64,000 bases of DNA, taken from the NCBI GenBank assembly GCA_024407875.1, contig JAKSVT010000006.1:1-64000 (forward strand), written 5' to 3'. This stretch comes from Alphaproteobacteria bacterium. Its GTDB lineage: Bacteria; Pseudomonadota; Alphaproteobacteria; CAAGCB01; CAG-977. The position numbers and the translations under genes are program-made. This document shows, piece after piece, positions 8,941 through 32,638 of this stretch. The first letter of the stretch is position 1. Each line of letters starts with the position of its first letter. Below the pieces are notes generated by a model that was not told where the DNA came from, did no database searches, and saw nothing but the letters and a program-made list of their open reading frames with translations.

Positions 8941-8953
8941 ACAAGGGATGGGT

Positions 8954-8992: not shown

Positions 8993-9921
8993 AAATTTTT
9001 TCGGGAAACAGCAACAGACCATTGGCAGAAGCAATTGCTAAGCATTTGGACAGAGAGCTTTCAAAATGTGTTGTTAAACGTTTCGCAGATAATGAAATCT
9101 TTGTAGAAATTGAGGAAACTGTACGTGGTGAAGATGTTTATATTATCCAACCAACATCAACACCTGTTAATGACCACTTGATGGAATTGTTAATTATGTT
9201 AGATACATTCCGTCGTTCTTCTGCTCAAAGAATTACAGCTGTTATTCCGTATTTTGGTTACGCACGTCAAGATAGACGTACAGCACCTAGAACACCTGTT
9301 AGTGCAAAATTAGTTGCAGATTTAATTGCACATGCTGGTGCTGATCGTGTTTTAACAATGGATTTACATGCAGGACAAATTCAAGGTTTCTTCAATATTC
9401 CTGTTGATAACTTAATGGGAGCCCCTGTTTTCTGTAACGATATTAAATTTAATTGTCGTGACAAAAAACCTATGGTTGTTTCTCCAGACGTTGGCGGTGT
9501 AGTTCGTGCTAGAGCTCTTGCAAAACGTTTAAATGCTGAATTAGCAATTATTGATAAACGTCGTGAACGTGCTGGTGTTTCTGAAGTTATGAACATTATT
9601 GGTGATGTAAAAGATCAAGATTGTATCTTGATTGATGATATCGTTGATTCAGCTGGAACATTATGTAATGCTGCAAAAGCTTTAATGAATGCTGGTGCTT
9701 CTTCTGTTCAAGCTTATTGCTCACATGGTGTATTATCAGGTGAAGCTGTAGAACGTGTTCAAGCATCTCCTTTAAAATCATTAGTTATTACAAATTCAAT
9801 TCAACCAACTGAAAAAGTTTTAGCTGCAGCTCCAAAAATTAGAGTTTTATCTATTGCTGATTTATTTGGTGAAGGTATTTTACGTATTAACGAAGAACGT
9901 TCTATTGCAAGCTTATTCTAA
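8989..9921 (+). CDS. prs: Ribose-phosphate pyrophosphokinase (PRPP synthetase)
   Basis: The 310-residue protein makes PRPP from ribose 5-phosphate and ATP, feeding purine, pyrimidine, histidine and NAD synthesis. It begins [17 protein letters not shown], contains the ATP/Mg loop [20 protein letters not shown], the [17 protein letters not shown] stretch and the PRPP-binding loop DDIVDSAGT at residues 216-224. Length and motifs are standard class I. A strong AAAGGGG site precedes the ATG. Confidence 0.97.
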
Positions 9922-9937
9922 TAAGGATTTATTGTAA

Positions 9938-10483
9938 TTGAAAAATATTTCACTTTTTGTTGGTATTTTGACCGCATGCTCTTTCTTAAGTGCATGCGGT
10001 GTTCAGACTAATCGTAGTTATCCTGAAAAATACGGAAAAAAATACGTACAAAATAGTCATTACACTCAAGAAATGCGTGATGATAAGATATTTGGAAATA
10101 AAGGTTTAGTTTTTGATATTAATGCTGAAGAATTATTGAAAAAAAACGAAAACTATAAACCTGAAAAAGCGCAAGCTGACAATAAAAATATTGAAGAAAT
10201 AAGTGAAAATAAAGTTCTTGTTGATAATAGTAATCTATGGAACAAGGCTTTATCTGTAATGATGGATTATCCTTTAGATATAACAGATAAAGAATCTGGA
10301 TATATTTCTTCTGAATGGATAAAAAAATCACAAACAGAACAAATGAAAATAAATGTTATTTTACAACCAAAATTAAAAGTTAGTGTTGTTTTAAGAAACA
10401 AAACAAAAAACGGAGATTTTGAAAATATTGGCAATGATAATGTGTTAGCTAATAAAATAAAAACCTCCATTGAAAAAGAATAG
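9938..10483 (+). CDS. DUF3576-like lipoprotein
   Basis: The 181-residue product starts at a TTG 10 bases after AAGGA and carries a lipoprotein signal with lipobox LSAC (Cys20). The C-terminal part (LWNKALSVMMDYPLDITDKE... GYISSEW... MKINVILQPKLK) fits the DUF3576 proteins that precede leuS in many Alphaproteobacteria, and that position is the strongest support. Probably an envelope lipoprotein; molecular role not known to me. It starts 16 bases after prs, so likely one operon with prs and leuS-lptE-holA. Confidence 0.7.
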   Translation: MKNISLFVGILTACSFLSACGVQTNRSYPEKYGKKYVQNSHYTQEMRDDKIFGNKGLVFDINAEELLKKNENYKPEKAQADNKNIEEISENKVLVDNSNLWNKALSVMMDYPLDITDKESGYISSEWIKKSQTEQMKINVILQPKLKVSVVLRNKTKNGDFENIGNDNVLANKIKTSIEKE

Positions 10484-10513
10484 TTTAATTTATTGTTTAA
10501 AGGCAGAAATAAA

Positions 10514-13096: not shown

Positions 13097-13631
13097 TAAT
13101 AAACGTATTTGGTCATTAATAGCCGTTATTGGAATAATTATTTCTTTAACGGCTTGTGGCTTTCGTCCTTTATACACATCAACTGGTGTAAATGGTGAAG
13201 ATAAATACATACAAGATGAATTATCACAAATTTTTATCGATGAAATCGAAGGATTTCACGGTCAAAAGATGCGTCGTCAATTATTAAGTTTAATTTCTCC
13301 TGAACATGAAGTTGAAAGAGGAAAATATAGACTATATGTAAACATTGGCACGCCTGTTAAATCTGAATTAGGTGTAAAAAGAAACAATCAAGCTACAAGA
13401 TTTCGTTTAAGTTATAATGTTAAATATACTTTATATTCTTTCCCTGAAATGAGTAAATTAAAGGTTGGATCTGTTTCTAAATTCTCAAGTTATGACGTAA
13501 ATAATAGTCCTCGTTCCTCTGATGTTGCTAAAGATGTTATGGAAGATAGATTATTAAAAGATATAGCTTATGATATCGCTATTCAATTATCTTCTTATTT
13601 CAAAAAAGAAGTAATCTCTGAACAAGAATAA
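13077..13631 (+). CDS. lptE: LPS-assembly lipoprotein LptE
   Basis: The 184-residue protein has a membrane-spanning signal and lipobox LTAC with Cys27 followed by GFRPLY, the characteristic start of mature LptE/RlpB. LptE plugs the LptD barrel that delivers LPS to the outer leaflet. It starts at TTG 13077, about 9 bases after GGTGA and inside the end of leuS; an upstream in-frame TGA excludes a longer form, and a TTG at 13089 is the alternative. The order leuS-lptE-holA is classic. Confidence 0.88.
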
Positions 13632-13648
13632 AATAGAGTTTTATTTTT

Positions 13649-14671
13649 ATGACTAAATTTAAAGAAGATGCTTTTAATTCATTAATTTCTACCGGTGTCA
13701 AAACACTAAAAGCTTTTTTGTTATACGGTAGTGATGAAGGCATGATTGACGAATATCGTGTAAAATTAGTAAAAGCAATATGTGAAGATATAAAAGATCC
13801 TTTTCGCATTGTTAATTTAACAAGCAGTGATGTTAGAGAAGATCCTTCTGTTTTGTCGGCTGAAGCAAATGCTATTACACTAATGGGAGGAAGAAGAGTT
13901 GTTACTATCAGAAATGCTGACAACTATCTTACAAAACCTTTAAAAGAATTTTTGGAATCTTATAAAGGTGATACTTTAATCATTGTTACAGCAGGATCAT
14001 TAAAATCAAATGATTCTTTGCCTACTTTATTTGATAAAGCTTCTGATTTAGGTCTTTTAGCTTGTTATGCGGATGAAGCAGAATCTTTAAAAAAACTTGT
14101 GGTAAATACATTAAAAGAAAATAATTTATCCGCATCACCTGATGTTATTCAATATATAGCAAATAATTTGGGTGCTGACAGATTATTATCTCGTTCAGAA
14201 CTTGAAAAATTGTGCGTTTATATGGGAAAAGAAACTACAATTACTATGGAAGATGCCGAAGCTTGTATTGGTGATGCAACATCTTTACCTATTGACGTTT
14301 TTTTATACGCTTTAACAGGTGGGGATCAAACAACTTTACATTCAACATTAGATCGTCTTTTTGCTTCAGGAGAAGCTCCTATTACACTTCTTCGTTTAGC
14401 AAATTCTCATTTAAAAAAATTTTATACAGTTTTTGCTCAAATTCAAAATGGCACAGATCAGTCAAGTGCTGTTCGTTCTCTCTTCTTAAATTTTAAACGT
14501 GTAGGCGATTTTACAAATCAATTACGTCGTTGGGATTTAAACAGAATAACAAAAGCTATGAATTTACTATTAAATGCAGAAAAACTTTGTAAGATTAAAG
14601 AAAATCCCCCAAAATTAATAGTAGGAAGAGCTTTTTTAGCAATTTGTGCTATGTCTGGAATTAGAAGATAA
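13649..14671 (+). CDS. holA: DNA polymerase III delta subunit
   Basis: At 340 residues it fits HolA, the clamp-loader subunit that opens the beta clamp. The N-terminal AAA+-like domain shows FLLYGSDEGMIDEY and GGRRVVTIRNAD, where family members have similar blocks, without a functional Walker A motif, as expected. The middle has QYIANNLGADRLLSRSELEKL and the C-terminal helical collar has ITLLRLANSHLKKFY. It closes the leuS-lptE-holA run. Only a weak ribosome site is visible. Confidence 0.9.
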   Translation: MTKFKEDAFNSLISTGVKTLKAFLLYGSDEGMIDEYRVKLVKAICEDIKDPFRIVNLTSSDVREDPSVLSAEANAITLMGGRRVVTIRNADNYLTKPLKEFLESYKGDTLIIVTAGSLKSNDSLPTLFDKASDLGLLACYADEAESLKKLVVNTLKENNLSASPDVIQYIANNLGADRLLSRSELEKLCVYMGKETTITMEDAEACIGDATSLPIDVFLYALTGGDQTTLHSTLDRLFASGEAPITLLRLANSHLKKFYTVFAQIQNGTDQSSAVRSLFLNFKRVGDFTNQLRRWDLNRITKAMNLLLNAEKLCKIKENPPKLIVGRAFLAICAMSGIRR

Positions 14672-14683
14672 TAGAGTAAAACA

Positions 14684-15214
14684 ATGAAACTATTTTTTGA
14701 AATGTTTTATGCATTCTTTAAAATAGGTACAATAACCATTGGAAGTGGTTTTGCCATGCTTCCTATCATTCAACATGAAGTTGTAGATAAAAAGAAGTGG
14801 TTTTCTGAATCTGAATACATGGATATATTATCCGTAGCCTTATCTTGTCCCGGTCCAAATATTATTAATTTAAATGTTTATTTAGGACTAAAAAAACTAG
14901 GATTTTGGGGATTTTTTGCTGGAGCTTTAGGAACAATTCTTCCTTCTTTTATACTAATTTTAATAATAGCTATAGGATTTCAAAATATTCAAAATAATCC
15001 TTATGTTATTGCTGCTTTTAAAGGCATTAAACCCGCTTCTGTAGCCTTAATTTCTGTTCCAGCGATTAGTATGGCTAAAAATGCAAAAGTTTTGAATAAA
15101 TTTATTTTTATTCCTTTAATAATAGCAGCTTTAATTGTTTATATGAATGTTTCACCAATTTTATTTATTGCTTGTGCAATAGCCTTTGGTAATTTGATTT
15201 TTAAGAAAAAATAG
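14684..15214 (+). CDS. Chromate-type transporter, N-terminal half (CHR domain)
   Basis: A 176-residue membrane protein, one CHR domain: FFKIGTITIGSGFAMLPIIQ at the start, then the PGPNIINLNVYLG motif and about five to six hydrophobic helices. Short-chain CHR proteins work as pairs and this one is followed 7 bases later by its partner. Family members export chromate, but many homologues have no proven substrate, and no chromate-resistance gene is nearby. Confidence 0.88.
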   Translation: MKLFFEMFYAFFKIGTITIGSGFAMLPIIQHEVVDKKKWFSESEYMDILSVALSCPGPNIINLNVYLGLKKLGFWGFFAGALGTILPSFILILIIAIGFQNIQNNPYVIAAFKGIKPASVALISVPAISMAKNAKVLNKFIFIPLIIAALIVYMNVSPILFIACAIAFGNLIFKKK

Positions 15215-15221
15215 GTGAAAT

Positions 15222-15749
15222 ATGTTACTTAGTTTATTTTTGACTTTCTTTAAAATCGGATTATTTAGCTTTGGCGGTGGATATGCAATGCTTGCATTAA
15301 TCCAAAGTGAAGTAGTAACAAAACATAAATGGTTATCAATTGGCGAATTTACAGATATTATTGCTATATCACAAGTAACACCAGGTCCTATTTCTATTAA
15401 TGCAGCAACATATATTGGCTGGAAAACAACAAATTCTTGGATTGGGTCAGCACTTGCTACATTTGGTGTTGCTCTTCCTTCTTTTATAGTAATCGTTTTA
15501 ATGTTCTTGTTTTTAGCAAAATATAATAATTCAAATTTTGTAAAAAATACTTTTAAAGCTTTAAGACCAACAGCTGCTGGATTAGTATTTTCTGCAGCGT
15601 TATTATTGATGACTAAAGAAAATTTTATTGATGCTTGGTCCATAGCTCTATTTTTAGGTTCATTCATCTTATTACAAAAAAAATGGGCTGGAGCTATAAC
15701 ATTAATTTTTGTTTCGGGACTTATTGGAATTTTATTATACGGCCCATAA
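15222..15749 (+). CDS. Chromate-type transporter, C-terminal half (CHR domain)
   Basis: A 175-residue paralogue of the preceding gene with the same blocks: FFKIGLFSFGGGYAMLALIQ and TPGPISINAATYIGW. The two halves probably insert in opposite orientations and form one antiport unit equal to a fused long ChrA. The start codon follows AGGTGAAAT. A DXS-like gene follows 17 bases later, probably in the same transcript. Confidence 0.88.
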   Translation: MLLSLFLTFFKIGLFSFGGGYAMLALIQSEVVTKHKWLSIGEFTDIIAISQVTPGPISINAATYIGWKTTNSWIGSALATFGVALPSFIVIVLMFLFLAKYNNSNFVKNTFKALRPTAAGLVFSAALLLMTKENFIDAWSIALFLGSFILLQKKWAGAITLIFVSGLIGILLYGP

Positions 15750-15766
15750 TTTAAATGGAGACATAA

Positions 15767-17503
15767 ATGTTATTAGATAGAATAAACTCTTCAAATGATG
15801 TTAAAAAATTAAACATTGATGAAATGAACGAATTAGCTAAAGAAATTCGTTTAGGAATATTAAATAGAACATCAAAAATTGGCGGACACGTAAGCCCAAA
15901 TTTAGGAATTGTTGAAACAACAATTGCTCTTCATTATGTTTTTGATACTCCTAAAGATAAAATTGTTTTTGACGTATCACATCAATGTTATGCACATAAA
16001 ATAATAACAGGCCGTAAAGAAGGTTTCTTTAATGAAGCTTATTTTGATAAAATTTCTGGATTTACTGCTCCTCTTGAAAGTGAGTATGATACCTTCGTAG
16101 TTGGTCATACATCAACATCTGTTAGTCTAGCATGTGGATTAGCTCAAGCAAGAGATGCTGTAAAAGGAAATGAACGAGTTATTGCGTTAATTGGAGATGG
16201 GTCTTTATCTGGTGGTGAAGCTTTAGAAGGTTTAGATTTTGCAGGAGAAATGAAAACAGGATTAATCATTATTGTAAATGATAATGAAATGTCTATTGCA
16301 GAAAATCATGGGGGCCTTTATAAAAACTTACAATTATTACGTGAAACTAAAGGAAAAGCTGAATGCAATTTATTTAAAGCAATGGGCTTAGAATATACAT
16401 ATTTAGAAGAAGGTAATAATATTAAAGCTTTAATTGATACTTTTGAAAAAATAAAAGATACAAAAGTTCCTGTAATAGTTCATATACACACTAATAAAGG
16501 TCAAGGATATCTTCCTGCTGATCAATATAAAGAAATGTTCCACTTTAATATGCCGTTTGATGTAGAAACAGGTCAAAGCAATTTTGATTTTTCAAAAGAA
16601 AACTATAATTCTCTTACTGCAAATTATTTAATGAACAAAGTTAAAGAAGATGAAAAAGTTTATATATTTAATGCAGGAACACCTGGAGCTTTAACTTTAA
16701 CACCTGATAAACGTGCTATTTTAGGCAAACATTTTATTGATGTTGGAATTGCTGAAGAACATGCTGTTGCTATGGTTTCTGCTATGGCAAAAAGAGGAGC
16801 AAAACCTGTTTTATGGTTATTAAGTTCATTTATTCAAAGAACTTATGATCAATTAAGCCAAGATTTAGCATTAAATAATTCTCCAGCCGTTATTATTGTT
16901 GGATGGGCTGGTATTAATAGTGCAGATATGACACACTTAGGATTGTTTGATATGACAATGATGTCAAATATTCCAAATTTAGTTTGTTTATCCCCATCAA
17001 ACAAAGAAGAATATTTAGCTATGTTAGATTGGGCAATTGATCAAAACAAACATCCTGTAGTAATACGATTGCCTCAAACTATTACTAAAACAAATAGAGA
17101 CGTTAAAACAGATTTTGATAATATTAATACCTATGAAGTTGTTGAAAAAGGAAGCGATATTGCAATTTTAGCTCTAGGACAAATGTTTGAATTAGGCCAA
17201 AATGTTGCTAATGCTTTAAAACAAAATGGAAAAAATCCTACTTTAATTAATCCTCGCTTTTACAGTGATGTTGATGAAAAAACTTTAACAGATTTATTAA
17301 AAAATCATTCTAAAGTTATAACCCTTGAAGATGGATCTTTATCTGGTGGTTTTGGAGAAAAAATCGCAAGATTTTTTGGACCAACTTCAATGAAAGTATT
17401 TACTTTCGGTGCTAATAAAGAATTTAATAATCATGTACCTTTAGATGAATTATTTAAGAAGTATCATCTTTCAGTTGATGAAATTCTTAAAATTATTCTA
17501 TAA
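15767..17503 (+). CDS. Short 1-deoxy-D-xylulose-5-phosphate synthase-like (transketolase family)
   Basis: The 578-residue protein has the DXS layout: GGHVSPNLGIVETTIALHYV, the thiamine-diphosphate motif GDGSLSGGEALEG...NDNEMSIAEN, the Glu-bearing DVGIAEEHAV and a C-terminal transketolase domain with LEDGSLSGGFGEKI. It is about 40-60 residues shorter than typical DXS, and the loop after AGxxxAD is one residue shorter before TH. It may be a true DXS making the isoprenoid precursor or a related paralogue; whether another dxs exists elsewhere is unknown. GGAGA precedes the ATG. Confidence 0.75.
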   Translation: MLLDRINSSNDVKKLNIDEMNELAKEIRLGILNRTSKIGGHVSPNLGIVETTIALHYVFDTPKDKIVFDVSHQCYAHKIITGRKEGFFNEAYFDKISGFTAPLESEYDTFVVGHTSTSVSLACGLAQARDAVKGNERVIALIGDGSLSGGEALEGLDFAGEMKTGLIIIVNDNEMSIAENHGGLYKNLQLLRETKGKAECNLFKAMGLEYTYLEEGNNIKALIDTFEKIKDTKVPVIVHIHTNKGQGYLPADQYKEMFHFNMPFDVETGQSNFDFSKENYNSLTANYLMNKVKEDEKVYIFNAGTPGALTLTPDKRAILGKHFIDVGIAEEHAVAMVSAMAKRGAKPVLWLLSSFIQRTYDQLSQDLALNNSPAVIIVGWAGINSADMTHLGLFDMTMMSNIPNLVCLSPSNKEEYLAMLDWAIDQNKHPVVIRLPQTITKTNRDVKTDFDNINTYEVVEKGSDIAILALGQMFELGQNVANALKQNGKNPTLINPRFYSDVDEKTLTDLLKNHSKVITLEDGSLSGGFGEKIARFFGPTSMKVFTFGANKEFNNHVPLDELFKKYHLSVDEILKIIL

Positions 17504-17560
17504 ATCTAATAATTTTGTGATATACAATATTTAGAAATTCTAATTTTTAATGGTGAAAAT

Positions 17561-18799
17561 ATGTTCAAATCAACTTTATTAAACATTTTAGTAGAACGTG
17601 GTTTTTATAATCAATGTACAAATGAACAAGGTTTTGATGATTATTTATATGATTGTGAAAAATCAGGAAAACCTGCTGTAGCATATTGTGGATCAGATCC
17701 TACTGGAGATAGTTTACATATTGGACATATTGTTCCATTTATGATGCTTCGTTGGTTCCAAAAATGTGGTAATAAACCTATCTTATTAGTAGGTGGAGCA
17801 ACAAGTAGAATTGGTGACCCTTCAGGAAAGGATAAATTGCGTCCATTCTTAGATGAAGCGACAATTAAACATAACATTGAAGGCTTAAAGAAATCATATT
17901 CTAAGTTTTTGCGTTTTGATGATAGTGAAACATCAGCAATGATTGTTGATAACTATGATTGGTTCAAGAACATGAATTATTTGGACTTTTTACGCGATAT
18001 AGGAACATATTATTCAGTAAATAGAATGTTAGCAATGGATAGCGTAAAATCACGTTTGGATCGTGAACAACAAATGACATTCTTAGAATTCAACTATATG
18101 TTATTACAAGGCTATGATTTCTGCGAATTATACCAAAAATATGGTTGTCGTGCACAAATCGCTGGATCAGATCAATGGGGAAATATTACTTCTGGTACAG
18201 AATTAGGTCGTCGTCGTTATGATGTTGAATTATTTGGATTTACAAGCCCTATTATTACAGATAGTTCCGGTAAGAAAATGGGTAAATCTGAAGGTAATGC
18301 CGTATGGATTAACGATGAAAAATTACCAGCATATGATTATTATCAATATTTCCGTAATGTTGGAGATGCTGATGTTGGCAAATGTTTACGTATATTCACT
18401 GAGCTTCCAATGGATGAAGTTAAACGCTTAGAAGCATTAAAAGATAAAGAAATTAATGAAGCTAAAAAGGTATTAGCATTTGAAGCTACAAAACTTTGCC
18501 GTGGTGAAGAACAAGCTTTAGCTGCACAACAAACTGCTGTTGCAACATTTGAACAAGGAAATGCTGGTGGTGATTTACCAACAATCAATGCTCAAGAAAT
18601 TGCTTTAACAGAAGCTTTATTCCAATTAAAGTTAGTTGCTTCAAAAGGTGATGCAAAGCGTATGATTGCTCAAAACGCTGTTAAAATTAATGATGTTGTA
18701 GTTTCAGATACAAACTTACAATTAAATGCTAGCAGTGCTGTTGACGGTAAGATCAAATTATCCGTTGGAAAGAAAAAACACGGTTTAGTTGTTTTATAA
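17561..18799 (+). CDS. tyrS: Tyrosyl-tRNA synthetase
   Basis: A 412-residue class I synthetase. The HIGH motif is LHIGHIVPF, the tyrosine/AMP pocket includes YCGSDPTGDSLH and QIAGSDQWGNI, and the KMSKS-like loop is KKMGKSEGN. A C-terminal S4-like RNA-binding domain follows (LKLVASKGDAKRMIAQNAVKIN). Length is standard for the bacterial TyrRS group. It leads into tsaE with an 11-base gap. Confidence 0.96.
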   Translation: MFKSTLLNILVERGFYNQCTNEQGFDDYLYDCEKSGKPAVAYCGSDPTGDSLHIGHIVPFMMLRWFQKCGNKPILLVGGATSRIGDPSGKDKLRPFLDEATIKHNIEGLKKSYSKFLRFDDSETSAMIVDNYDWFKNMNYLDFLRDIGTYYSVNRMLAMDSVKSRLDREQQMTFLEFNYMLLQGYDFCELYQKYGCRAQIAGSDQWGNITSGTELGRRRYDVELFGFTSPIITDSSGKKMGKSEGNAVWINDEKLPAYDYYQYFRNVGDADVGKCLRIFTELPMDEVKRLEALKDKEINEAKKVLAFEATKLCRGEEQALAAQQTAVATFEQGNAGGDLPTINAQEIALTEALFQLKLVASKGDAKRMIAQNAVKINDVVVSDTNLQLNASSAVDGKIKLSVGKKKHGLVVL

Positions 18800-18810
18800 T
18801 CGGCAATAAA

Positions 18811-19275
18811 ATGGAAAATAATAATTTTGAATTTGTTGTTGATGAACAAGGCTTAGAAAATCTAGCAAAAAAATTAGCTCCTCAATTAAATACAGGTGAC
18901 TGTATTTTGTTAGATGGTACTTTAGGTATGGGAAAAACAGTTTTTTCTCGTGCTTTTGTTCGTGCTTTAACAAGTAATGAAACAGAAGTTCCAAGTCCCA
19001 CATTTACTTTAGTTCAAGTATATGATACCGATAAAACTACTATTTGGCATTTTGATTTATACAGAATTAAATCTCCTGATGAAATCTATGAAATAGGTTT
19101 TGAAGAAGCTCTAGCAACAGGAATTTCTTTAATAGAATGGCCTGAAAGAGCAAAAGGAATGTATCCTAAAAATGCTATTACTGTTCATTTTGAACAAGGA
19201 CCTGAACAAAATTTAAGAAAAATCACTATAGATTTTCCAAAAGATTTACGAAAAAGCAACAATCTTTGTTTATGA
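18811..19275 (+). CDS. tsaE: tRNA t6A-modification ATPase TsaE
   Basis: The 154-residue P-loop ATPase of the threonylcarbamoyladenosine complex. The Walker A is GTLGMGKTVFS (Gly-rich, K-T), followed by the family stretch VPSPTFTLVQVYD and WHFDLYRI, where the Asp and Arg act at the active site, then LIEWPERAKG. TsaE drives the TsaB-TsaD cycle that modifies A37 of ANN-reading tRNAs. In Alphaproteobacteria it often precedes the amgK-murU pair, as here. Confidence 0.95.
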   Translation: MENNNFEFVVDEQGLENLAKKLAPQLNTGDCILLDGTLGMGKTVFSRAFVRALTSNETEVPSPTFTLVQVYDTDKTTIWHFDLYRIKSPDEIYEIGFEEALATGISLIEWPERAKGMYPKNAITVHFEQGPEQNLRKITIDFPKDLRKSNNLCL

Positions 19276-19319
19276 TTTTGATAAATTATTTATCATTTTT
19301 ATAAACAGAGGTATTTTTT

Positions 19320-20345
19320 ATGTCTGAAAGAGATATAGCTTTAGCAAAATTTTTAGAAAAAAATAATTGGGCTGATGGTGATAAAAAATTATTAGCTCAT
19401 GATGCTTCATTCCGTCATTATGATAGAATTGTAAGAGGTGACGAATCTGTTGTTTTAATGGATGCTCCTCCTCCAATGGAAGATATCCGTCCATTTATTA
19501 CTGTTGATAAAAAATTACGCGAATTAGGTTTAAGCGCCCCATATATGTATGATTACGATGAAGAAAATGGTTTTATTCTTCTTGAAGATTTCGGAGATTC
19601 AACATATACAAAATTAATTAATGCTGGAACTGAAGAATATGATTTATACGCTTTAGCTACTGATGTTTTAGTTCATTTAAATCAATTTGATGATAAAATT
19701 TCTGTTCCACAAGGTTTACCAAAATATGATACAGAAGCTCTTTTAAAAGAAGCTATGTTATTCCCTGAATGGTATATGCCTGCAGTATTTGGCCATAAAA
19801 CAGATGAAAAAGCTATGGATGAATATCGTAATTTATGGATAAAAGCTTTTGATTCTATAAAAGATGTTTCAAAATCTATGGTATTACGTGATTACCATGT
19901 AGATAATCTTATGATTTTAAACAATAAACCTGAAGGTTTAAAGGAATGTGGCTTATTAGACTTCCAAGATGCACTTCATGGTCCTATGATTTACGATATC
20001 ATGTCTTTAATGGAAGATGCTCGTCGTGATATTGATGCAAAATTAATTACTGAAATGCAATTTAGATATCGTGATGGCTTAAAACATGCAGGTTTTGCTG
20101 ATAAAGCTGGAACTTTAGATGAATTTAATACTGTATGGAAAATTTTAGCTGCAGGCCGTCATGCAAAAGTATTAGGTATTTTTGTTCGTCTTTGTGTAAG
20201 AGATCATAAACCAAAATATTTATGTCATATTCAAAGATTATGGCATTTATTAGATAGAGCTTTATCAGATCCTGCTTTAAAAGATTTAAGAGTATGGTTT
20301 GATAAAAATGTTCCTGATGAATATAGGATTACTCCAAAATGCTAA
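19320..20345 (+). CDS. amgK: AmgK-like anomeric sugar kinase
   Basis: A 341-residue aminoglycoside-phosphotransferase-fold protein. The catalytic loop is RDYHVDNLM and the metal-binding Asp is in LLDFQDALHGPMIYDIMSL, a run typical of AmgK. AmgK phosphorylates MurNAc/GlcNAc at C1 in the recycling route that bypasses de novo UDP-MurNAc synthesis. Its stop overlaps the murU start by 7 bases, and that pairing with a nucleotidyltransferase is the main reason to prefer AmgK over a drug-resistance kinase. Confidence 0.85.
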   Translation: MSERDIALAKFLEKNNWADGDKKLLAHDASFRHYDRIVRGDESVVLMDAPPPMEDIRPFITVDKKLRELGLSAPYMYDYDEENGFILLEDFGDSTYTKLINAGTEEYDLYALATDVLVHLNQFDDKISVPQGLPKYDTEALLKEAMLFPEWYMPAVFGHKTDEKAMDEYRNLWIKAFDSIKDVSKSMVLRDYHVDNLMILNNKPEGLKECGLLDFQDALHGPMIYDIMSLMEDARRDIDAKLITEMQFRYRDGLKHAGFADKAGTLDEFNTVWKILAAGRHAKVLGIFVRLCVRDHKPKYLCHIQRLWHLLDRALSDPALKDLRVWFDKNVPDEYRITPKC

Positions 20346-21160
20346 AATTAGAAACAGCTATGATTTTGGCTGCTGGTCGTGGTTCACGTATGCGTGAATT
20401 AACTAATGAGTTGCCAAAACCTTTAATTAAAGTTCAAGGAAAAACATTAATTGATCATATTGTGGATAAATTAATTACAGTTGGAATTAAACGCTGTATC
20501 GTTAATTTATGCTATTTAGGAGATATGATTAAAGAACAACTTTTAAAACGCTCTAATGAAATGGAATTCGTCTTTTCTTATGAAGATGAAGCTCTAGAAA
20601 CAGGTGGTGGTTTAAAAAAAGCTCTTCCTTTATTTAAGGATCAAGAAGAATTATTGGTTGTTAATGCAGATCCATTATGGACTGAGGTTAGAATCCCTGC
20701 TTTAGCAAAATTAATGAGCTCATATGATTTGTTTCCAAATATAGCTGATGTAATGCTTATGGTGTTGCCGTTAGATAAAAATCGTATACATGGTTTTGAT
20801 GGTGTTGGCGATTACTTTATGGAAACAGAAGGTAAACTCCGTCGTAGATTAAAAGAAGAAACTTCTGCTCCATTTATTTATGGTGGAGCTCAAATTATTA
20901 GAAAATCATTTTTTGAATCTGCAACAGAACAAATGCCTGAAAATAGCAAATTTTCTTTAAATGTTGCTTATGATGCTGCACAAAAACAAGGAAGACTTGT
21001 CGGTGTAAGTCATGATGGTGAATGGTTCCACGTAGGAACTCCAGAAGCAGTTGTTGATGCAGAGTCTAATTTTCACGATACAATAATTTCACCTGAAATT
21101 TGCCGAAAAATTACTGAGCTATCAGAAAAAGATTTTCGAGAAATCTCAACAAATTCTTAA
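20339..21160 (+). CDS. murU: MurU-like sugar-1-phosphate uridylyltransferase
   Basis: The 273-residue nucleotidyltransferase starts with the signature AMILAAGRGSRMRELTNELP followed by KPLIKV, which binds nucleotide and Mg2+. It also has ETGGGLKKALPLF, VNADPLW and the C-terminal EWFHVGTPEAV. With AmgK it would turn MurNAc-1-P into UDP-MurNAc, recycling peptidoglycan sugars. It is about 30-50 residues longer than the Pseudomonas enzyme as I recall it. The start is inside amgK. Confidence 0.85.
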   Translation: MLKLETAMILAAGRGSRMRELTNELPKPLIKVQGKTLIDHIVDKLITVGIKRCIVNLCYLGDMIKEQLLKRSNEMEFVFSYEDEALETGGGLKKALPLFKDQEELLVVNADPLWTEVRIPALAKLMSSYDLFPNIADVMLMVLPLDKNRIHGFDGVGDYFMETEGKLRRRLKEETSAPFIYGGAQIIRKSFFESATEQMPENSKFSLNVAYDAAQKQGRLVGVSHDGEWFHVGTPEAVVDAESNFHDTIISPEICRKITELSEKDFREISTNS

Positions 21161-21250
21161 ATTTTTTGTTGATTCATTCTTTATTTTTTTGTCTAAATAT
21201 TATATAATTGTATTTAGATTGTAGGTTTTATATAATTAAGGAAAAATTAA

Positions 21251-22018
21251 ATGCTTGAAAATACCAGAAAACGGATATCTTTAAAATCAGATAGTAATTT
21301 CGTCTGGTCTCAAAAAAAAGCTGCAGCAGATGATAACAAAACAGTTCATTCAAACACTGTTTCTCAAGACAATATTTTGTTTAGAAATGCTCAGCAAGCA
21401 AAAGAAGCTGAAGATCGTTTATACAGCCAGAAAGTTTCTCAACCAGCTCCTACAATTGAAGATAAAAAACAAGAATATAAAGAAAATAAAGCTAAAGAAG
21501 ATAATCGTCAAATCCGTCAATCTTTAGGCGTAAGAGATGCAATCTTAGCTCAAGAAGCAAAATTAGGCGTTAAGGGTATCATTTCTAAACGTGATTTACA
21601 ACAAGCTCAATATATGGATCCTTCTTTAGTTGGTAAGGCAAAACCATTAGATGTTACAAAAAAAGATGTAAAAGGTTTAGAAGGTACTAGAAAGCGTAAA
21701 ACGCATGGCAAATCTATGTTATTACCTAGCCAACGTAAAAAGCGTTTCAATCGTAAGAAACAAGAAAAAGAATTAGAAAAGAATAGAAATATTGAACGTG
21801 ATAAGATAGCTGCTAAGAAATTCAAAAAAGAATTAACAGTAACTGATTCCAAAGGAAATAAAATCAGTATTGAACGTTTACGTAAATTACGTGGATTACA
21901 AAATTCAACACCAATTAAACGTAAAGACCTAAAACAAGCTCGTGAACAATTAAAATCTCGAATTGTTGCTTCAAAAGCTCAAGGTCATGTTCATCGTGGT
22001 GAAGATTACACAAGATAA
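21251..22018 (+). CDS. Unrecognised highly charged, basic protein
   Basis: A 255-residue protein with no membrane segment or signal, very rich in Lys, Arg, Gln and Glu. Residues 1-95 look disordered with a coiled-coil-like stretch; 130-180 hold basic clusters (GTRKRKTHGKS, SQRKKRFNRKKQEKELEKNR) suggesting binding to nucleic acid or another polyanion; the rest is a short folded-looking block around TVTDSKGNKISIERLRKLRG. AAGGAAA precedes the ATG. It sits 35 bases upstream of a membrane-anchored nuclease-like gene, so the two may act together. I recognise no family. Confidence 0.75.
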   Translation: MLENTRKRISLKSDSNFVWSQKKAAADDNKTVHSNTVSQDNILFRNAQQAKEAEDRLYSQKVSQPAPTIEDKKQEYKENKAKEDNRQIRQSLGVRDAILAQEAKLGVKGIISKRDLQQAQYMDPSLVGKAKPLDVTKKDVKGLEGTRKRKTHGKSMLLPSQRKKRFNRKKQEKELEKNRNIERDKIAAKKFKKELTVTDSKGNKISIERLRKLRGLQNSTPIKRKDLKQAREQLKSRIVASKAQGHVHRGEDYTR

Positions 22019-22053
22019 ATCATATTTAAATAATAAATAAAAGGCTTATACAA

Positions 22054-22971
22054 ATGTTTAAAATGCTCATTCGTATGTTTGTTCTTATGGCTATTATGGC
22101 TGGATCATACGTTTCTAGTACAAAATTTAAATCAACTGACCCTTCAGTAATTTTTAGTGGTATGGGTTCTTTATGTGTATGTGGTTTAATTCTATTTCTT
22201 TTCACTAGAAAAATGTGGAGACACATTGGTTTTTTCAAAGCATTAGGTATTGTAGTATTTTTATTAATTGCGATGGTATTCGTTGTTTCTGGTGGATCTA
22301 TGGCTAGAAATATTACAAATGCTGTATTAGGAGTATTTGGTAAATCTACAGCTCAAACTTCTCAGCAAGTAGCACCTACACAACAACAACTTCCTTCTCC
22401 AGGACAAGAAGGTCAACAAGTTCAACAACAACCTCAAGAACAAGCTCCTGTTGTAATTAATGGTTATGTTTCATTAATTAAAGGCGGAGATCATTTTATT
22501 ATGAATGGTTTACCTTTCCGTATTTTTGGTATTGTATCTCCAGATATATCTCAAATTTGTCAAAATGCTCAAGGACGTGATTATCCATGTGGAAAAATGT
22601 CTGCAATGCGTTTAAAAGAATTTATTGGCGGAGATGAAGTATCTTGTACTGTAATGGCACAAAGCAATTCAGGTGAATTACAATCTCGTTGTTCAATTAA
22701 GAATAATGATTTAACAATGGATATTGGTGCAGCAATGGTTCAAGCTGGTTGGGCTGTTGCTTTAGTTTCTCATACACAGGTTTATATTCCATATCAACAA
22801 ATGGCTCAAAACAATAGAGCTGGATTATGGAATGGAACATTCATGATGCCTTGGGAATGGCAAGTTCATCAAATGAATATTAAAAAAGGATTAGCTAACG
22901 TTAAAGTTCCTACTGTTAAAGTTAAGAAAGAACGTAAATCATCAGGCAAATCAATATTTGATCATTTCTAA
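22054..22971 (+). CDS. Membrane-anchored, degenerate staphylococcal-nuclease-like protein
   Basis: A 305-residue protein with three hydrophobic helices in the first 95 residues, a Gln/Pro-rich linker (about 103-133), then an SNase-like domain: GDHFIMNGLPFRIFGIVSPD, a Cys-bearing CQNAQGRDYPCGKMSAMRLKEF block, GELQSRCSIKNNDLTMDIGAA and VQAGWAVAL. The overall pattern is that of bacterial thermonuclease-family proteins, but I do not see the acidic pair normally found beside the first catalytic Arg (IDAPE becomes IVSPD). It is probably catalytically altered. The C-terminal tail is basic. Confidence 0.7.
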   Translation: MFKMLIRMFVLMAIMAGSYVSSTKFKSTDPSVIFSGMGSLCVCGLILFLFTRKMWRHIGFFKALGIVVFLLIAMVFVVSGGSMARNITNAVLGVFGKSTAQTSQQVAPTQQQLPSPGQEGQQVQQQPQEQAPVVINGYVSLIKGGDHFIMNGLPFRIFGIVSPDISQICQNAQGRDYPCGKMSAMRLKEFIGGDEVSCTVMAQSNSGELQSRCSIKNNDLTMDIGAAMVQAGWAVALVSHTQVYIPYQQMAQNNRAGLWNGTFMMPWEWQVHQMNIKKGLANVKVPTVKVKKERKSSGKSIFDHF

Positions 22972-24392: not shown

Positions 24393-25376
24393 TTATTGAG
24401 CAGCTGCTTTATTTTCATCTGCTTCACGGAACAAAGGCTTACCTTGATATAATCTTGCAGCTTGGGACTCCATCAAAGTACCTAAAGCAATCTGTCTATC
24501 ACGAATTGCAATACGTAATTGATCCCCTGTTGTTGGATCTGGATTTGCAAAAGCAAAATGAACTTCAGGATACATTTGCTTAATACCTTGTAATTTTTGG
24601 TGAATTACAGCTAAAATACCGCGAGATAACAAATCTGCAGCTAATTCTTCTGATAAGTCACCACCTGAGGCATACTTAATAACAGAGTTTAAAGCATCTT
24701 CTACAGAGTTTGCGTGAATTGTAGATAATACCAAGTGTCCTGATGTTGCAGCACGCAAAATTTGGCTTGCACAATCAGGTGTTCTTATTTCGCCTACTAA
24801 AATATAACGTGGTCTTGAACGTAATGCTGATTTTAAAGACTCGCCCCAATCATCATTAACAGGTTCTGTTTGTTTACATAAACCCAAACCACCACGCTTA
24901 GATTGATATAAACCATCCAAAGGCATTTCAGGAGGATCTTCAATTGTATAAGCAAAACCACCTTCACGTTCCAAAAACTTACGCATTAAACATGAAATAG
25001 ATGTTGTTTTACCAGCACCTGTTGGACCAGCCCACAAAATCAAACCTGCTTCACGATTTAATGAAATCAAGTGATTTGTAATTGCTGGAGGCAATCCCAA
25101 ACGAATAACATCAGGTGTTTTACGTGGCATACGACGTGCTGTATAGTGAATACCTGTTAATGTAGATATTCTTTCAACACGGTACATTGTTGATCCATAA
25201 GCCATAGAATAGCTAGAACGACCATTATAAGCCATTTCTAAAGCTGATCTAAACTCCATTGCATCATCAACTACTAATTCTTTTAAACCAAATCTTGTTT
25301 CACCATCATGAACATATATTACGCCCTCAGGTGTGAAATAAACATCAGAAAAAAGTTGTTCGTCTATCTTTGCCAT
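24393..25376 (-). CDS. DotB/TraJ/PilT-type secretion ATPase
   Basis: A 327-residue hexameric-type ATPase of the VirB11/PilT superfamily. It has an N-terminal PAS-like domain, RRMPRKTPDVIRLGLPPAI, Walker A GPTGAGKTTS at about residue 117, an Asp box with YTIEDPPEMPL, Walker B-type ILVGEIRTPD and the His box HLVLSTIHANS. The TIEDPPE and RxMPR wording is closest to DotB/TraJ ATPases of type IVB secretion and conjugation. No secretion cluster surrounds it; the only other pilus-like genes in this window are at 49-53 kb. Confidence 0.85.
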   Translation of the reverse strand: MAKIDEQLFSDVYFTPEGVIYVHDGETRFGLKELVVDDAMEFRSALEMAYNGRSSYSMAYGSTMYRVERISTLTGIHYTARRMPRKTPDVIRLGLPPAITNHLISLNREAGLILWAGPTGAGKTTSISCLMRKFLEREGGFAYTIEDPPEMPLDGLYQSKRGGLGLCKQTEPVNDDWGESLKSALRSRPRYILVGEIRTPDCASQILRAATSGHLVLSTIHANSVEDALNSVIKYASGGDLSEELAADLLSRGILAVIHQKLQGIKQMYPEVHFAFANPDPTTGDQLRIAIRDRQIALGTLMESQAARLYQGKPLFREADENKAAAQ

Positions 25377-28431: not shown

Positions 28432-29445
28432 TTATTCAACAACTTGAACTTCTACACGACGATCTGGTGCTAAACAATCATTTAATTCTTTAGTATCTGT
28501 GATTCCATCACATTTATTTCCTGTTACTGGATTTTCTTCACCATAACCAATAACATTTTTAATTTGTTTACCATAACCATTTGCACGAATTTCTTCTGCA
28601 ACAGCATCTGCTCTACGTTGTGATAAAGCTTTATTTGCTTCTACAGAACCTATACGATCTGTATAACCATATACGTTAATTCCAAAATTTCTTTCACCTT
28701 TGTATTCTGATAAAGCTTTAGAAATATCAGCTTTTCCTGCTTGAGATAATCTTGAGCTACCAGATGCAAAAGCATCACCCTTTAATGCTAATTTACCAAC
28801 AACTTTTTTAGGTTCTTTTTTACTGCATTTTTTACCAAAATTATATGTTAAACCTAAATAAACGTCATGAATTCTTATTCTTGTTTTTAAATCATTATCT
28901 CCAATTGACTTTTTAGCATCGTTGTAATTTTGATAACGATATCCAGCATCTAATGATAAATCATTTGTCAATTTATACATTAAACCTGCACCTAATTGCC
29001 ATGCAAATTTATTTTGAGTACTTTTTAAAAAATTATCATTGCTATTTAAATTTATTCTAGCAAGTCCAACACCACCACCTACATAAGGTGTAATCTTAGA
29101 ATCATTATCAAAATCATAATATTCATTTAACATAAATGATTGTGTTTTTAATGTAGGATGTGCATATCTTGAAACACCATTAGTATCTTTAAATTTTTTA
29201 TTTAAATTATATTCAAATTCAGATCTAAAATTTGCCCACTTAACACCAACTGCTGCACTTACACCCCAATTTTTATCATCAACATCAGCTTTATAATTTC
29301 CTTCATCACCATTAACATATGTATCATATCTAGCTTGTAAACGGTGACCCTTTACTGAAACATATGGATTTAATTCTGAAGCATTTGCTGTATTTATTGC
29401 TAATAAACCTGCAACACCTAATGTAATTCCAAATAATTTTTTCAT
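28432..29445 (-). CDS. OmpA-family outer membrane protein
   Basis: A 337-residue protein with signal peptide (MKKLFG, cut near NANA), an eight-strand-type beta-barrel (to about residue 205) with alternating aromatic strands, and a C-terminal OmpA peptidoglycan-binding domain with YGYTDRIGSVEANKALSQRR, where the Asp and Arg bind diaminopimelate. Near its end C-DGITDTKELNDC-LAPDRRVEV holds a Cys pair likely to be disulfide-bonded. The start with AAAGGAGT just upstream is clear; a longer frame lacks support. Likely abundant and structural. Confidence 0.93.
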   Translation of the reverse strand: MKKLFGITLGVAGLLAINTANASELNPYVSVKGHRLQARYDTYVNGDEGNYKADVDDKNWGVSAAVGVKWANFRSEFEYNLNKKFKDTNGVSRYAHPTLKTQSFMLNEYYDFDNDSKITPYVGGGVGLARINLNSNDNFLKSTQNKFAWQLGAGLMYKLTNDLSLDAGYRYQNYNDAKKSIGDNDLKTRIRIHDVYLGLTYNFGKKCSKKEPKKVVGKLALKGDAFASGSSRLSQAGKADISKALSEYKGERNFGINVYGYTDRIGSVEANKALSQRRADAVAEEIRANGYGKQIKNVIGYGEENPVTGNKCDGITDTKELNDCLAPDRRVEVQVVE

Positions 29446-29579
29446 AAAAAACTCCTTTTTATTAAATGGAAAAATAATATTATTCATATATCATTTTATA
29501 AGAGTTAAATCAACATTCAAAATAGTATGGAAAATTTGTATAAAAACTAAAAAAAAGAAAATATATTTTTTTTGCTTAC

Positions 29580-29870
29580 TTATTTATAAGTTGTGGATAA
29601 CTATGATGCAATTTTATCAAGAACTTATCCATATTAATTATCAACAGTTTTTTTATTAACATTAATTTTTTTTACAAAATAACGACTCTCAAAACATTAA
29701 CGAGTCTTTTTTTCTGTGTATAACTAGGATAACTTTTTATCCACAATTTACAAAAATATAAAAATAATTTTTTCCACATGTGAATAATTTTATGCAAAAA
29801 TTTTTATAAATGGGATATAATGCTTGCGTCGGTGATTTTTTGTAAAGTTATCAAACTTATTCACAATTTA
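29580..29870. other. Candidate chromosomal replication origin (oriC)
   Basis: The 460-base gene-free stretch between ompA and maf is extremely AT-rich and holds six matches to the DnaA-box consensus TTWTNCACA: 29592-29600 (minus), 29715-29723 (minus), 29737-29745 (plus), 29770-29778 (plus), 29779-29787 (minus) and 29857-29865 (plus). Two of these are perfect TTATCCACA. One-mismatch boxes lie at 29625-29633 and 29638-29646. The boxes at 29770 and 29779 abut head to head. The adjoining maf-aroE-coaE-dnaQ operon is the gene block found next to oriC in Caulobacter-like genomes. AT runs on either side could be the unwinding element. Confidence 0.8.
29793..29821 (+). promoter_or_regulatory. Candidate promoter of maf-aroE-coaE-dnaQ
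   Basis: A perfect TATAAT lies at 29816-29821, 85 bases before the maf start, with a weak -35 element (TGCAAA) 17 bases upstream. DnaA boxes flank it on both sides, so DnaA binding could affect its use. Confidence 0.4.
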
Positions 29871-29905
29871 ATACACAGAAAATACAAATTAAGGAGTGTT
29901 TAATT

Positions 29906-30496
29906 ATGTTAATTTTGGCATCTCAAAGTCGTTCTAAAAGAGAATTATTGGAAGACGCAGGAGTAGAGTTTAAAGCAATTTCTCCATCTGTTGATGAAGA
30001 TTCTTTGAAAAAACAATTATTTGTTGATTCAATACCAGCTAAAGATGCCGCAATTGAATTAGCATCAGCTAAGGCAAAAGATGTTAGTGAAAAAAATCCA
30101 GATGCTTTTGTTATAGGAGCTGATCAATTATTAGAATTAAATGGTGAATGGTTTTCAAAACCTGAAAACATTAGTATGGCTCATAAGCATTTAAAAAAAT
30201 TACGTAATAAAGAACATAAATTATACACAGGTGCTGTTATTATGAAATCTGGAAAGATTTTATGGAAAAATACTTCTATAGTATCTGTAGTTATGCGTGA
30301 CTATACTGATAACTTTATTGATGAATATATAGCTAATGCTGGTGATGATATTTGTGAATCTGTAGGTGCTTATTATATTGAAGATTTAGGTGCTCAGTTA
30401 ATAAAATCTGTAGATGGTGATTTCTTTTCAATATTAGGTTTACCTTTATTACCTTTATTAGAATGTTTACGTTCTATTGGGGAATTGAAGAGATGA
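29906..30496 (+). CDS. Maf-family nucleotide pyrophosphatase
   Basis: The 196-residue protein opens with the Maf signature LILASQSRSKRELLEDAGV and the SPSVDE loop, and has the GADQLLELNG and SVGAYYIEDLGAQLIKSVDGDF blocks. Maf enzymes hydrolyse non-canonical nucleoside triphosphates (dTTP/UTP or modified pyrimidines) and have been linked to division arrest. AAGGAG precedes the ATG. The last four bases overlap aroE. It is the first gene beside the putative origin. Confidence 0.93.
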   Translation: MLILASQSRSKRELLEDAGVEFKAISPSVDEDSLKKQLFVDSIPAKDAAIELASAKAKDVSEKNPDAFVIGADQLLELNGEWFSKPENISMAHKHLKKLRNKEHKLYTGAVIMKSGKILWKNTSIVSVVMRDYTDNFIDEYIANAGDDICESVGAYYIEDLGAQLIKSVDGDFFSILGLPLLPLLECLRSIGELKR

Positions 30497-31299
30497 TTTT
30501 GAAACCTGCATGTGTAATAGGGTTTCCAATTGAACATTCAAAATCACCATTAATTCATAATTATTGGCTAAAAAAACACAATATAGATTCCAACTATACA
30601 AAGGTTTTAGTTGAACCTGAAAATTTATCAAATTTTATGAAAAATATTCATGATTATTCAGGAATAAATGTAACAGTTCCTCATAAAGTTTCTATTATAC
30701 CTTATTTAGATGAATTAACTTTGACTGCAAAAAAAGCAGGCGCTGTTAATACTGTATATATAGAAAATGGAAAAGTTATTGGTCATAATACAGATGGGAT
30801 AGGTTTTGTAAATAATTATAAATCAAAATCTAATTTAGAAGTAAATACTGTAACAATTTTAGGTACAGGTGGAGCATCTAGGGGAATTTGTTCAGCTTTA
30901 AAATGTAAAAAATTAAATATTGTTTATAGAACATTGGAAAAAGCTGAAAAAATAAAAACAGATTTAGAAAAATATGAGAATATTGAAATTTGTTTAATTC
31001 CATGGAATGAAAAAGAAGATGTTTATTTTGAAACAGATTTACTAGTAAACGCAACTACTTTGGGAATGACAGGTTTTGATAATTTAATTACAGATTTATC
31101 AAATTTAAAATCTGATGCTATTGTAGCTGATGTTGTATATAAACCTTTAATTACGGATTTTTTAAAACAAGCTGAAAAATTAAATCATCCTATTGCTGAT
31201 GGATTAGGTATGTTATTAGGTCAAGCAGCTCCAGCCTTTGAAAAATTCTTTGGTATTTTGCCTACAATTGATGAAGATTTAAGAAAATTAGTTATATAG
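30493..31299 (+). CDS. aroE: Shikimate dehydrogenase
   Basis: A 268-residue NADP enzyme of aromatic amino-acid synthesis. The substrate site shows GFPIEHSKSPLIHN and NVTVPHK with the catalytic Lys, then NTDGIGF; the nucleotide fold has LGTGGASRGI. DGLGMLLGQAAPAFEKFFG closes the protein. The ATG at 30493 overlaps the maf stop as ATGA; a longer in-frame start at 30463 lies inside maf and adds non-family residues. Confidence 0.95.
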   Translation: MILKPACVIGFPIEHSKSPLIHNYWLKKHNIDSNYTKVLVEPENLSNFMKNIHDYSGINVTVPHKVSIIPYLDELTLTAKKAGAVNTVYIENGKVIGHNTDGIGFVNNYKSKSNLEVNTVTILGTGGASRGICSALKCKKLNIVYRTLEKAEKIKTDLEKYENIEICLIPWNEKEDVYFETDLLVNATTLGMTGFDNLITDLSNLKSDAIVADVVYKPLITDFLKQAEKLNHPIADGLGMLLGQAAPAFEKFFGILPTIDEDLRKLVI

Positions 31300-31308
31300 G
31301 AAATTATT

Positions 31309-31923
31309 ATGGTAATAGGTTTAACAGGTTCGATGGGTGCAGGAAAATCTACAACATCACAGATGTTAACGCAGTTAGGATTTTTTGTTTTTGATGCTGA
31401 TGATGTGTGTCATAAATTGATGGAAAATCCAATAATAATTCAAAAATATAAAGAAAAAGTACCTCAGTGCGTTATTGATGGCGTAATTGATAGAAATATT
31501 TTATCAAAAATGGTTGTTGATAACAAAGTTACTATAGAAGAATTAGAAGATTTAATTATTCCTAGTTTAAATGTTAGAGTAAATGAATTTATATATGCTC
31601 ATTTAGATGATATTGTCGTTTTAGATGTTCCTTTATTATTTGAAAAAAAATGGGATAAATATTGTGAAAAAATCATATATGTTACTGCTTCTTTAGGTAA
31701 TTTAAAATCAAGAGTTATGAAAAGACCAGGAATGAGTGAGGAAAAATATAAAGCTCTAATGTCTAATTTTTTACCTGAAAAAGATAAAAAAGCAAAAAGT
31801 GATTATATTATAGAAACAGATTATGGTTTAGATTATGTTCGTAATAAATTAAATATAATAAAAGAAGAATTATTAGAAATTAAATCAAAACAAAAACCAA
31901 AGATAGAACAGATATTGAACTAA
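31309..31923 (+). CDS. coaE: Dephospho-CoA kinase
   Basis: The 204-residue protein has the P-loop GLTGSMGAGKSTTSQML, the substrate-contact FDADDVCHKLM and the LDVPLLFEKKWD block with later RVMKRPGMSEEKYKALMSNF. It does the last step of coenzyme A synthesis. Its C-terminal tail is Lys-rich. It lies 9 bases after aroE and 13 before dnaQ in one operon. Confidence 0.95.
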   Translation: MVIGLTGSMGAGKSTTSQMLTQLGFFVFDADDVCHKLMENPIIIQKYKEKVPQCVIDGVIDRNILSKMVVDNKVTIEELEDLIIPSLNVRVNEFIYAHLDDIVVLDVPLLFEKKWDKYCEKIIYVTASLGNLKSRVMKRPGMSEEKYKALMSNFLPEKDKKAKSDYIIETDYGLDYVRNKLNIIKEELLEIKSKQKPKIEQILN

Positions 31924-31936: not shown

Positions 31937-32638
31937 ATGATAGAAATAGTATTTGATACAGAAACAACAGGTATAGATTATAGTAAAGGACATCGAATTA
32001 TTGATATTGGATGTGTTGAAGTAAATAACTATGTTCCAACTGGAAGAACATATCAAGTATATATTAATCCTGAAAGAATTGTTCCTGAAGAAGTTGTAAA
32101 AATTCACGGATTAACTAATGAATTTTTAAAAGATAAACCTGTATTTAAAGATATTGTTGATGGATTTTTAGAATTTATAGGTGATAAACCTTTAGTTGCT
32201 CATAATGCTAATGGTTTCGATGTTCCATTTTTAAATTTTGAACTAAAGAACGCAGGTTATCCTCCTTTAAAAAATAAAATAATAGATTCACTAGAAATAG
32301 CTAAAAAAATCAATCCAACATGTAATTCATTAGATGATTTATGTAAAAAATATGGTGTTGATAACTCCATGAGAACAGAACATGGAGCTTTACTTGATTC
32401 TGTTTTATTAGCCGAAGTTTATATGTATTTAACTGGAGGTAAAGCTCCAAAATTAGATATTTTTACACATGTTGAAACTATAGAACATCATTATCGTGAA
32501 CCAAGAAATTTTCCTTTAAGTGAAGAAGAAGAAAAGAATTTTGCTTTATACATGAAGGGATTAGATAAAATAGCTAAAAAAGCTGGTAATTCACAATTAT
32601 GGGCAGAAATGAACGAAGTTTATGATTCAAGTAAATAG
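31937..32638 (+). CDS. dnaQ: DNA polymerase III epsilon subunit (3'-5' proofreading exonuclease)
   Basis: A 233-residue DEDDh exonuclease. Motif I is VFDTETTGID, motif II VAHNANGFDVPFLNFEL, and motif III includes the His and Asp in EHGALLDSVLLAEVY. A C-terminal tail of about 50 residues is in the place where DnaQ binds the polymerase alpha subunit. It ends the origin-proximal operon. Confidence 0.93.
   Translation: MIEIVFDTETTGIDYSKGHRIIDIGCVEVNNYVPTGRTYQVYINPERIVPEEVVKIHGLTNEFLKDKPVFKDIVDGFLEFIGDKPLVAHNANGFDVPFLNFELKNAGYPPLKNKIIDSLEIAKKINPTCNSLDDLCKKYGVDNSMRTEHGALLDSVLLAEVYMYLTGGKAPKLDIFTHVETIEHHYREPRNFPLSEEEEKNFALYMKGLDKIAKKAGNSQLWAEMNEVYDSSK

What the first reader, a model, noticed from the sequence alone, without database searches (positions are those of the whole stretch)
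29446..29905. Strong candidate chromosomal replication origin
Six matches to the DnaA-box consensus TTWTNCACA, two of them perfect TTATCCACA, sit within about 275 bases of a gene-free AT-rich stretch, two boxes abutting head to head, plus near matches. The adjoining operon maf-aroE-coaE-dnaQ is the gene block found beside oriC in Caulobacter-like Alphaproteobacteria. On the other side is an OmpA gene, not the hemE found in some relatives, so the left flank seems rearranged.
Basis: partly seen in the sequence, partly recalled or inferred. Interest (0 to 1): 0.75.

Follow-up and report, generated by a model that had tools for sequence, protein, structure and literature searches.

The report
Chromosome replication origin, comparatively confirmed
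This stretch is almost certainly where an uncultured gut alphaproteobacterium starts copying its chromosome; it is an ordinary kind of origin, but both neighbouring genes normally used to find it have been lost and the segregation sites that usually sit close by are far away.

Summary
In detail: six exact TTWTNCACA sites lie in 29592-29865, and no window shuffle gave more than three in 275 bp. The oriC interpretation holds, on five new tests. (1) All 11 other genomes of the family have a homologous box cluster directly before maf. A profile built without this sequence recovers it at E=4e-19, and it is single copy in the genome. (2) In two relatives with 374 and 238 kb contigs, the cumulative GC-skew minimum falls within about 1 kb of the cluster. 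(3) In this genome, third-codon-position skew changes sign exactly between ompA and maf, for genes on both strands. (4) parS sites lie 2-23 kb from the cluster in 11/11 relatives. (5) Gene order is mirrored about it. Similar sequence lies between hemE and ppsR in other alphaproteobacterial orders, so this is the Caulobacter-type origin. The family has lost both hemE and ppsR genome-wide, so the origin abuts maf. The left flank is indeed rearranged, but the standard left neighbour here is rho, not hemE, and parABS now lies at least about 66 kb away. New member of a known kind; function unproven without experiments.

The parts
29592..29865 (.). oriC core: DnaA-box cluster homologous to the maf-upstream region of 11 relatives
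   Evidence: leave-own-out profile match 29591-29865, E 4.4e-19; single copy genome-wide
29446..29905 (.). Gene-free AT-rich intergenic region holding oriC (starts after the likelier ompA start at 29445)
   Evidence: 20% GC in the 450 bp before maf
29592..29600 (-). DnaA box TTATCCACA (left-edge box, aligned in 12/12 genomes with substitutions in some)
29715..29723 (-). DnaA box TTATACACA
   Evidence: aligned with TGTGGATAA boxes of relatives
29737..29745 (+). DnaA box TTATCCACA; with GGATAA at 29727 it forms the near-palindrome GGATAACTTTTTATCC seen in most relatives
29770..29778 (+). DnaA box TTTTCCACA, abutting the next box head to head
   Evidence: aligned with TTATACACA of relatives
29779..29787 (-). 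DnaA box TTATTCACA
29857..29865 (+). DnaA box TTATTCACA in the conserved right-edge block TTATCAgACTTATgCACA
29625..29646 (+). Two near-matches, TTATCCATA (29625) and TTATCAACA (29638); candidate weak DnaA sites
   Evidence: TTATC(A/C)ACA here in most relatives
29684..29706 (.). Two GANTC sites (GACTC 29684, GAGTC 29702), candidate CcrM methylation sites; the second is aligned with a GANTC in 10 of 11 relatives
   Evidence: CcrM-like methylase in 12/12 genomes
29536..29591 (.). Putative duplex-unwinding element left of box 1, assigned by homology
   Evidence: least stable 40-mer of the 700 bp before maf starts between -357 and -308 in 11/11 relatives; in this genome it starts at -446 instead
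29906..30496 (+). maf (nucleotide pyrophosphatase), right neighbour in 12/12 genomes
30493..31299 (+). aroE
31309..31923 (+). coaE
31937..32638 (+). dnaQ
28432..29445 (-). OmpA-type outer membrane protein (left neighbour here; rho in relatives)

Best explanation
29592-29865, with the AT-rich DNA to its left, is the single chromosomal replication origin (oriC) of this genome and is homologous to the hemE/ppsR-flanked origin of other Alphaproteobacteria. Proposed working: DnaA-ATP binds the outer and central boxes, oligomerises leftward from the left-edge box into the AT-rich tract before it, melts it and loads DnaB, and two forks leave through ompA and maf. The GANTC sites probably couple refiring to CcrM methylation. 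Shown: box cluster, conservation, single copy, skew sign change, parS linkage in relatives, presence of a dnaA gene and a CcrM-like gene. Inferred: DnaA binding, side of unwinding, methylation control.
For: Clustering far above chance and unique in the genome. Boxes at corresponding positions before maf in 12/12 genomes whose flanks range from 27 to 56% GC. Leave-own-out profile E 4.4e-19. Cumulative GC-skew minimum at 118774 on a 374-kb contig of G004 (boxes 118961-119225) and at 139477 on a 238-kb contig of G006 (boxes 138468-138731). In this genome the raw local minimum within 22-56 kb is at 29777 and the cumulative third-codon-position minimum lies between ompA and maf: -0.41 to the left, +0.197 on plus-strand and +0.196 on minus-strand genes to the right. 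parS-like sites 1.7-23 kb from maf on the same contig in 11/11 relatives. Gene order of G004 and G006 mirrored about maf. Homologous sequence between hemE and ppsR in Sneathiella and a Methylocystaceae MAG.
Against: No experiment and no read-depth data. The genome is a 47-contig draft with foreign contigs, so a chromosome-wide skew curve could not be drawn. Raw skew over the whole window has its lowest point at 5981, and contig C43 shows a raw V near parABS; third-position skew removes the C43 signal but leaves 6-23 kb of C44 near zero (-0.03). No conserved CtrA or IHF sites were found.
Confidence: 0.95

Rival explanations
1. The box cluster is a DnaA-regulated promoter of maf or ompA, or a DnaA-titrating site, and the origin is elsewhere.
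For: DnaA boxes also occur in promoters; the region lies between two divergent genes, so it must hold their promoters too.
Against: Skew changes sign here in three genomes, it is the densest cluster on the contigs examined and genome-wide for TTATYCACA, and parS lies near it in all relatives.
Confidence: 0.03
2. The active origin is on contig C43 near parABS (about 37-54 kb), and the C44 copy is a relic or was moved recently.
For: C43 has a raw GC-skew V with parS at its centre and holds rho, secB and other genes that flank oriC in relatives.
Against: Third-position skew is negative over nearly all of C43 on both strands, so the raw V follows gene direction. C43 has only 11 scattered boxes and no meaningful match to the origin profile.
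Confidence: 0.015
3. The origin lies beside dnaA, as in many other bacteria.
For: This genome has a dnaA-dnaN-recF-gyrB cluster on C8.
Against: Only one TTWTNCACA site (34978, inside dnaA) was listed near it, and the weak C8 profile match is at 17295, E 0.006. Box-bearing dnaA contigs C36 and C31 look like contamination from another phylum.
Confidence: 0.005

Closest known systems
Caulobacter crescentus Cori and the hemE-COG1806 origins of Alphaproteobacteria (PMC1914354)
   Same: DnaA-box cluster in an AT-rich intergenic region before the maf-aroE-coaE-dnaQ block; outgroup origins between hemE and ppsR align with it; GANTC sites and a CcrM-like methylase.
   Different: hemE and ppsR (COG1806) not found in any of the 12 genomes. 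No conserved CtrA (TTAA-N7-TTAA) or IHF sites, whereas Cori is reported with five CtrA sites and one IHF site (PMC1914354).
Wolbachia/Ehrlichia/Anaplasma origins (COG1253-hemE flanked; PMC1914354)
   Same: Alphaproteobacterial origin whose flanking genes changed by rearrangement while the box cluster persisted.
   Different: Those keep hemE and lose the COG1806 side; here the maf side is kept and both marker genes are gone.
Basal unwinding system, DnaA box + GC spacer + DnaA-trio (PMC8287927, PMC10721633)
   Same: AT-rich, least stable DNA plus a triplet-periodic tract (GTTGTTGTT, or GTAGTAG in G009 and TAGTAG in G011) next to a CC spacer and the left-edge box.
   Different: Most relatives have GTT-type triplets rather than the 3'-GAT-5' consensus; in this genome the tract is degenerate.

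Membership tests
Bacterial chromosomal oriC | Cluster of DnaA boxes in an AT-rich intergenic region, beyond chance | tested here: met
   6 in 275 bp; shuffles at most 3
Bacterial chromosomal oriC | Strand-composition sign change (skew minimum) at the site | tested here: met
   Two relatives on long contigs; third-position skew in this genome. Not testable chromosome-wide in a 47-contig draft.
Bacterial chromosomal oriC | Single copy and conserved among relatives | tested here: met
   One strong match per genome, 12/12 genomes
Bacterial chromosomal oriC | Initiator DnaA encoded in the genome | tested here: met
   C8:34047-35423, TIGR00362 428 bits, over cut-off
Bacterial chromosomal oriC | DnaA binding, unwinding and bidirectional initiation | not testable with these tools
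   Needs footprinting, marker frequency or an ARS assay
Bacterial chromosomal oriC | parS sites within tens of kb (usual, not strictly defining) | tested here: inconclusive
   Met in 11/11 relatives; in this genome parS is on C43, at least about 66 kb away
Caulobacter-type (hemE-ori-ppsR-maf) origin | Located beside maf-aroE-coaE-dnaQ | tested here: met
Caulobacter-type (hemE-ori-ppsR-maf) origin | hemE and/or ppsR (COG1806) as boundary genes | tested here: not met
   Neither gene found in any of 12 genomes; controls including Caulobacter ring
Caulobacter-type (hemE-ori-ppsR-maf) origin | Sequence homology to hemE-ppsR flanked origins | tested here: met
   Profile matches at the hemE-ppsR site in Sneathiella and a Methylocystaceae MAG, E 1.9e-15 to 1.9e-4
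Caulobacter-type (hemE-ori-ppsR-maf) origin | CtrA and IHF sites | tested here: not met
   One TTAA-N7-TTAA at -17 and one IHF-like match in this genome only; none in 11 relatives. Presence of CtrA itself not tested.
Caulobacter-type (hemE-ori-ppsR-maf) origin | GANTC sites with CcrM methylase | tested here: met
   GANTC in 12/12 origins; RAMA-domain methylase in 12/12, own copy NF050803 E 4e-171, below that model's cut-off

The most novel reading that the evidence does not exclude
In this lineage the origin is decoupled from its usual surroundings: both boundary genes have been lost, rho and the parABS segregation locus have been moved at least about 66 kb away by rearrangement, and replication control has shifted from CtrA to CcrM/GANTC methylation alone.
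Probability: 0.15. Interest if true: 0.5.

Novelty: new member of a known kind. Interest (0 to 1): 0.3.

Why it matters
It gives an origin for a poorly known group of gut and rumen Alphaproteobacteria whose standard origin markers (hemE, ppsR) are absent, so marker-based origin finding would fail; the 309-position profile finds it in every genome of the family. It allows growth-rate estimates from metagenomic read depth and gives a case for asking how an origin and its parS sites tolerate separation.

Tried and rejected
Raw skew on C43 first looked like a competing origin; third-position skew showed it follows gene direction. Three full-length dnaA genes looked odd until C36 and C31 proved to be probable contaminants with another phylum's gene order and 33-37% identity to the family's DnaA. 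Two perfect boxes 188 bp apart on C22 are the next best pair; no further boxes there and no origin-profile match. Contig-end overlaps gave no C43-C44 join. First alignment exceeded the model limit. A DnaA-trio assignment is left open because only G009 and G011 approach the published consensus. Hypothesised inversion junctions (C43 about 36.9 kb, C44 about 22.5 kb) rested on raw skew and are not claimed.

Full report
Observation. The window is bases 1-64000 of contig C44 of a 1.77-Mb, 47-contig draft genome. Six exact TTWTNCACA sites lie in 29592-29865, in the gene-free interval between an ompA-type gene (better start 29445, encoding MKKLFG...) and maf at 29906. Shuffles keeping dinucleotides never gave more than three sites in 275 bp, whether the window or the 460-bp region was shuffled. 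Genome-wide, four of the 43 TTATYCACA sites are here and no other spot has more than two within 500 bp.

Conservation. Maf orthologues were found in the 11 other held genomes of the family. Every one has DnaA boxes in the 300 bp before maf, at corresponding positions: about -278 (-), -255 (+), -154 (-), -99 (+), -22 (+). Flanking GC ranges from 27 to 56%, so the boxes stand out against very different backgrounds. A nucleotide profile built without this genome recovers 29591-29865 at E 4.4e-19 and nothing comparable on the other own contig pieces examined. With all 12, each genome has one strong match, before maf.

Replication asymmetry. In G004 a 374-kb contig has its cumulative GC-skew minimum at 118774 with boxes at 118961-119225; in G006 a 238-kb contig has it at 139477 with boxes at 138468-138731; both clusters are the densest on their contigs. 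In this genome raw skew is confusing: the window's lowest point is at 5981, the local minimum within 22-56 kb is at 29777, and contig C43 shows a V near parABS. Third codon positions, which are less tied to gene direction, resolve it. On C44 the cumulative minimum lies between ompA and maf; right of it plus-strand genes give +0.197 and minus-strand genes +0.196. On C43 the value is negative over nearly all 75 kb on both strands, so C43 appears to lie within one replichore. The remaining soft spot is C44 6-23 kb, near zero (-0.03), which I read as a recently rearranged segment (inference).

Neighbourhood. parS-like sites lie 1.7-23 kb from maf in all 11 relatives. Genes left of maf in G004 lie right of it in G006 at similar distances and opposite orientation, and the reverse, the pattern expected of inversions symmetric about an origin (general knowledge). 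In relatives the immediate left neighbour is rho. In outgroups such as Sneathiella the order is hemE, boxes, ppsR, maf, and the family profile matches those box regions. hemE and ppsR were not found in any of the 12 genomes while controls rang. So the family lost both markers and kept the origin in place. In this genome hisB-hslV-hslU, left of the origin in relatives, lie right of dnaQ, and rho, secB and parABS are on C43. From contig ends, parS is at least about 66 kb from the origin.

Anatomy and mechanism. The least stable 40-mer of the 700 bp before maf starts at -357 to -308 in 11/11 relatives, left of the left-edge box; in this very AT-rich genome it starts at -446. Between it and the box lies a triplet-periodic tract (GTTGTTGTT; GTAGTAG in G009) and a short CC spacer, resembling the basal unwinding system (consensus 3'-GAT-5', PMC8287927, PMC10721633), but most members do not match that consensus. 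I therefore propose unwinding on the left side, as inference. All 12 origins hold GANTC sites; GANTC is depleted to about 0.6 of expectation in sampled DNA; and all 12 genomes encode a RAMA-domain methylase, the own copy matching the CcrM model at E 4e-171 although below its cut-off. CcrM control is plausible, not shown. Conserved CtrA and IHF sites were not found.

Verdict. It is oriC with about 95% confidence; a new member of a known kind. What is of some interest is the loss of both marker genes and the distance to parS.

Noticed in passing
G000:C36 (L091) and G000:C31 (L092): Short contigs carrying dnaA-dnaN with rnpA/yidC/jag or recF-gyrB neighbours; their DnaA is 33-37% identical to the family's and groups apart. 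Probable contamination of the draft genome from another phylum.
   Followed up: partly
G000:C43:37002-37241 (L089): Array of four parS-like sites directly upstream of rsmG-parA-parB in one intergenic region, with further sites at 16044 and 31630, unlinked to oriC in this draft.
   Followed up: partly
L093:9048-10424 (C8 dnaA) and L053 (G011 dnaA): DnaA of this genome and of G011 is unusually divergent (38-43% to family members) although Maf is 58-68% identical.
   Followed up: no
L107:10587-14615 (G011): In G011 maf and aroE are separated by about 3.2 kb of other genes, and coaE/dnaQ do not follow aroE directly.
   Followed up: no
window 5917-22971: Block of plus-strand housekeeping genes (leuS, dxs, tyrS, tsaE, amgK-like) left of oriC, directed towards it, with third-position skew near zero: possibly a recent inversion.
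   Followed up: partly
window 24393-25376: Isolated T2SSE-family ATPase, nearest to PilT/ComGA/DotB models but below every cut-off.
   Followed up: no
C43+C44, G004:C15, G006:C1: GANTC is depleted to 0.57-0.64 of first-order expectation in these genomes, as reported for CcrM-bearing bacteria from general knowledge.
   Followed up: partly
window 1-3733: Repetitive adhesin-like gene at the contig end, with internal copies about 387 bp apart, which probably broke the assembly.
   Followed up: no
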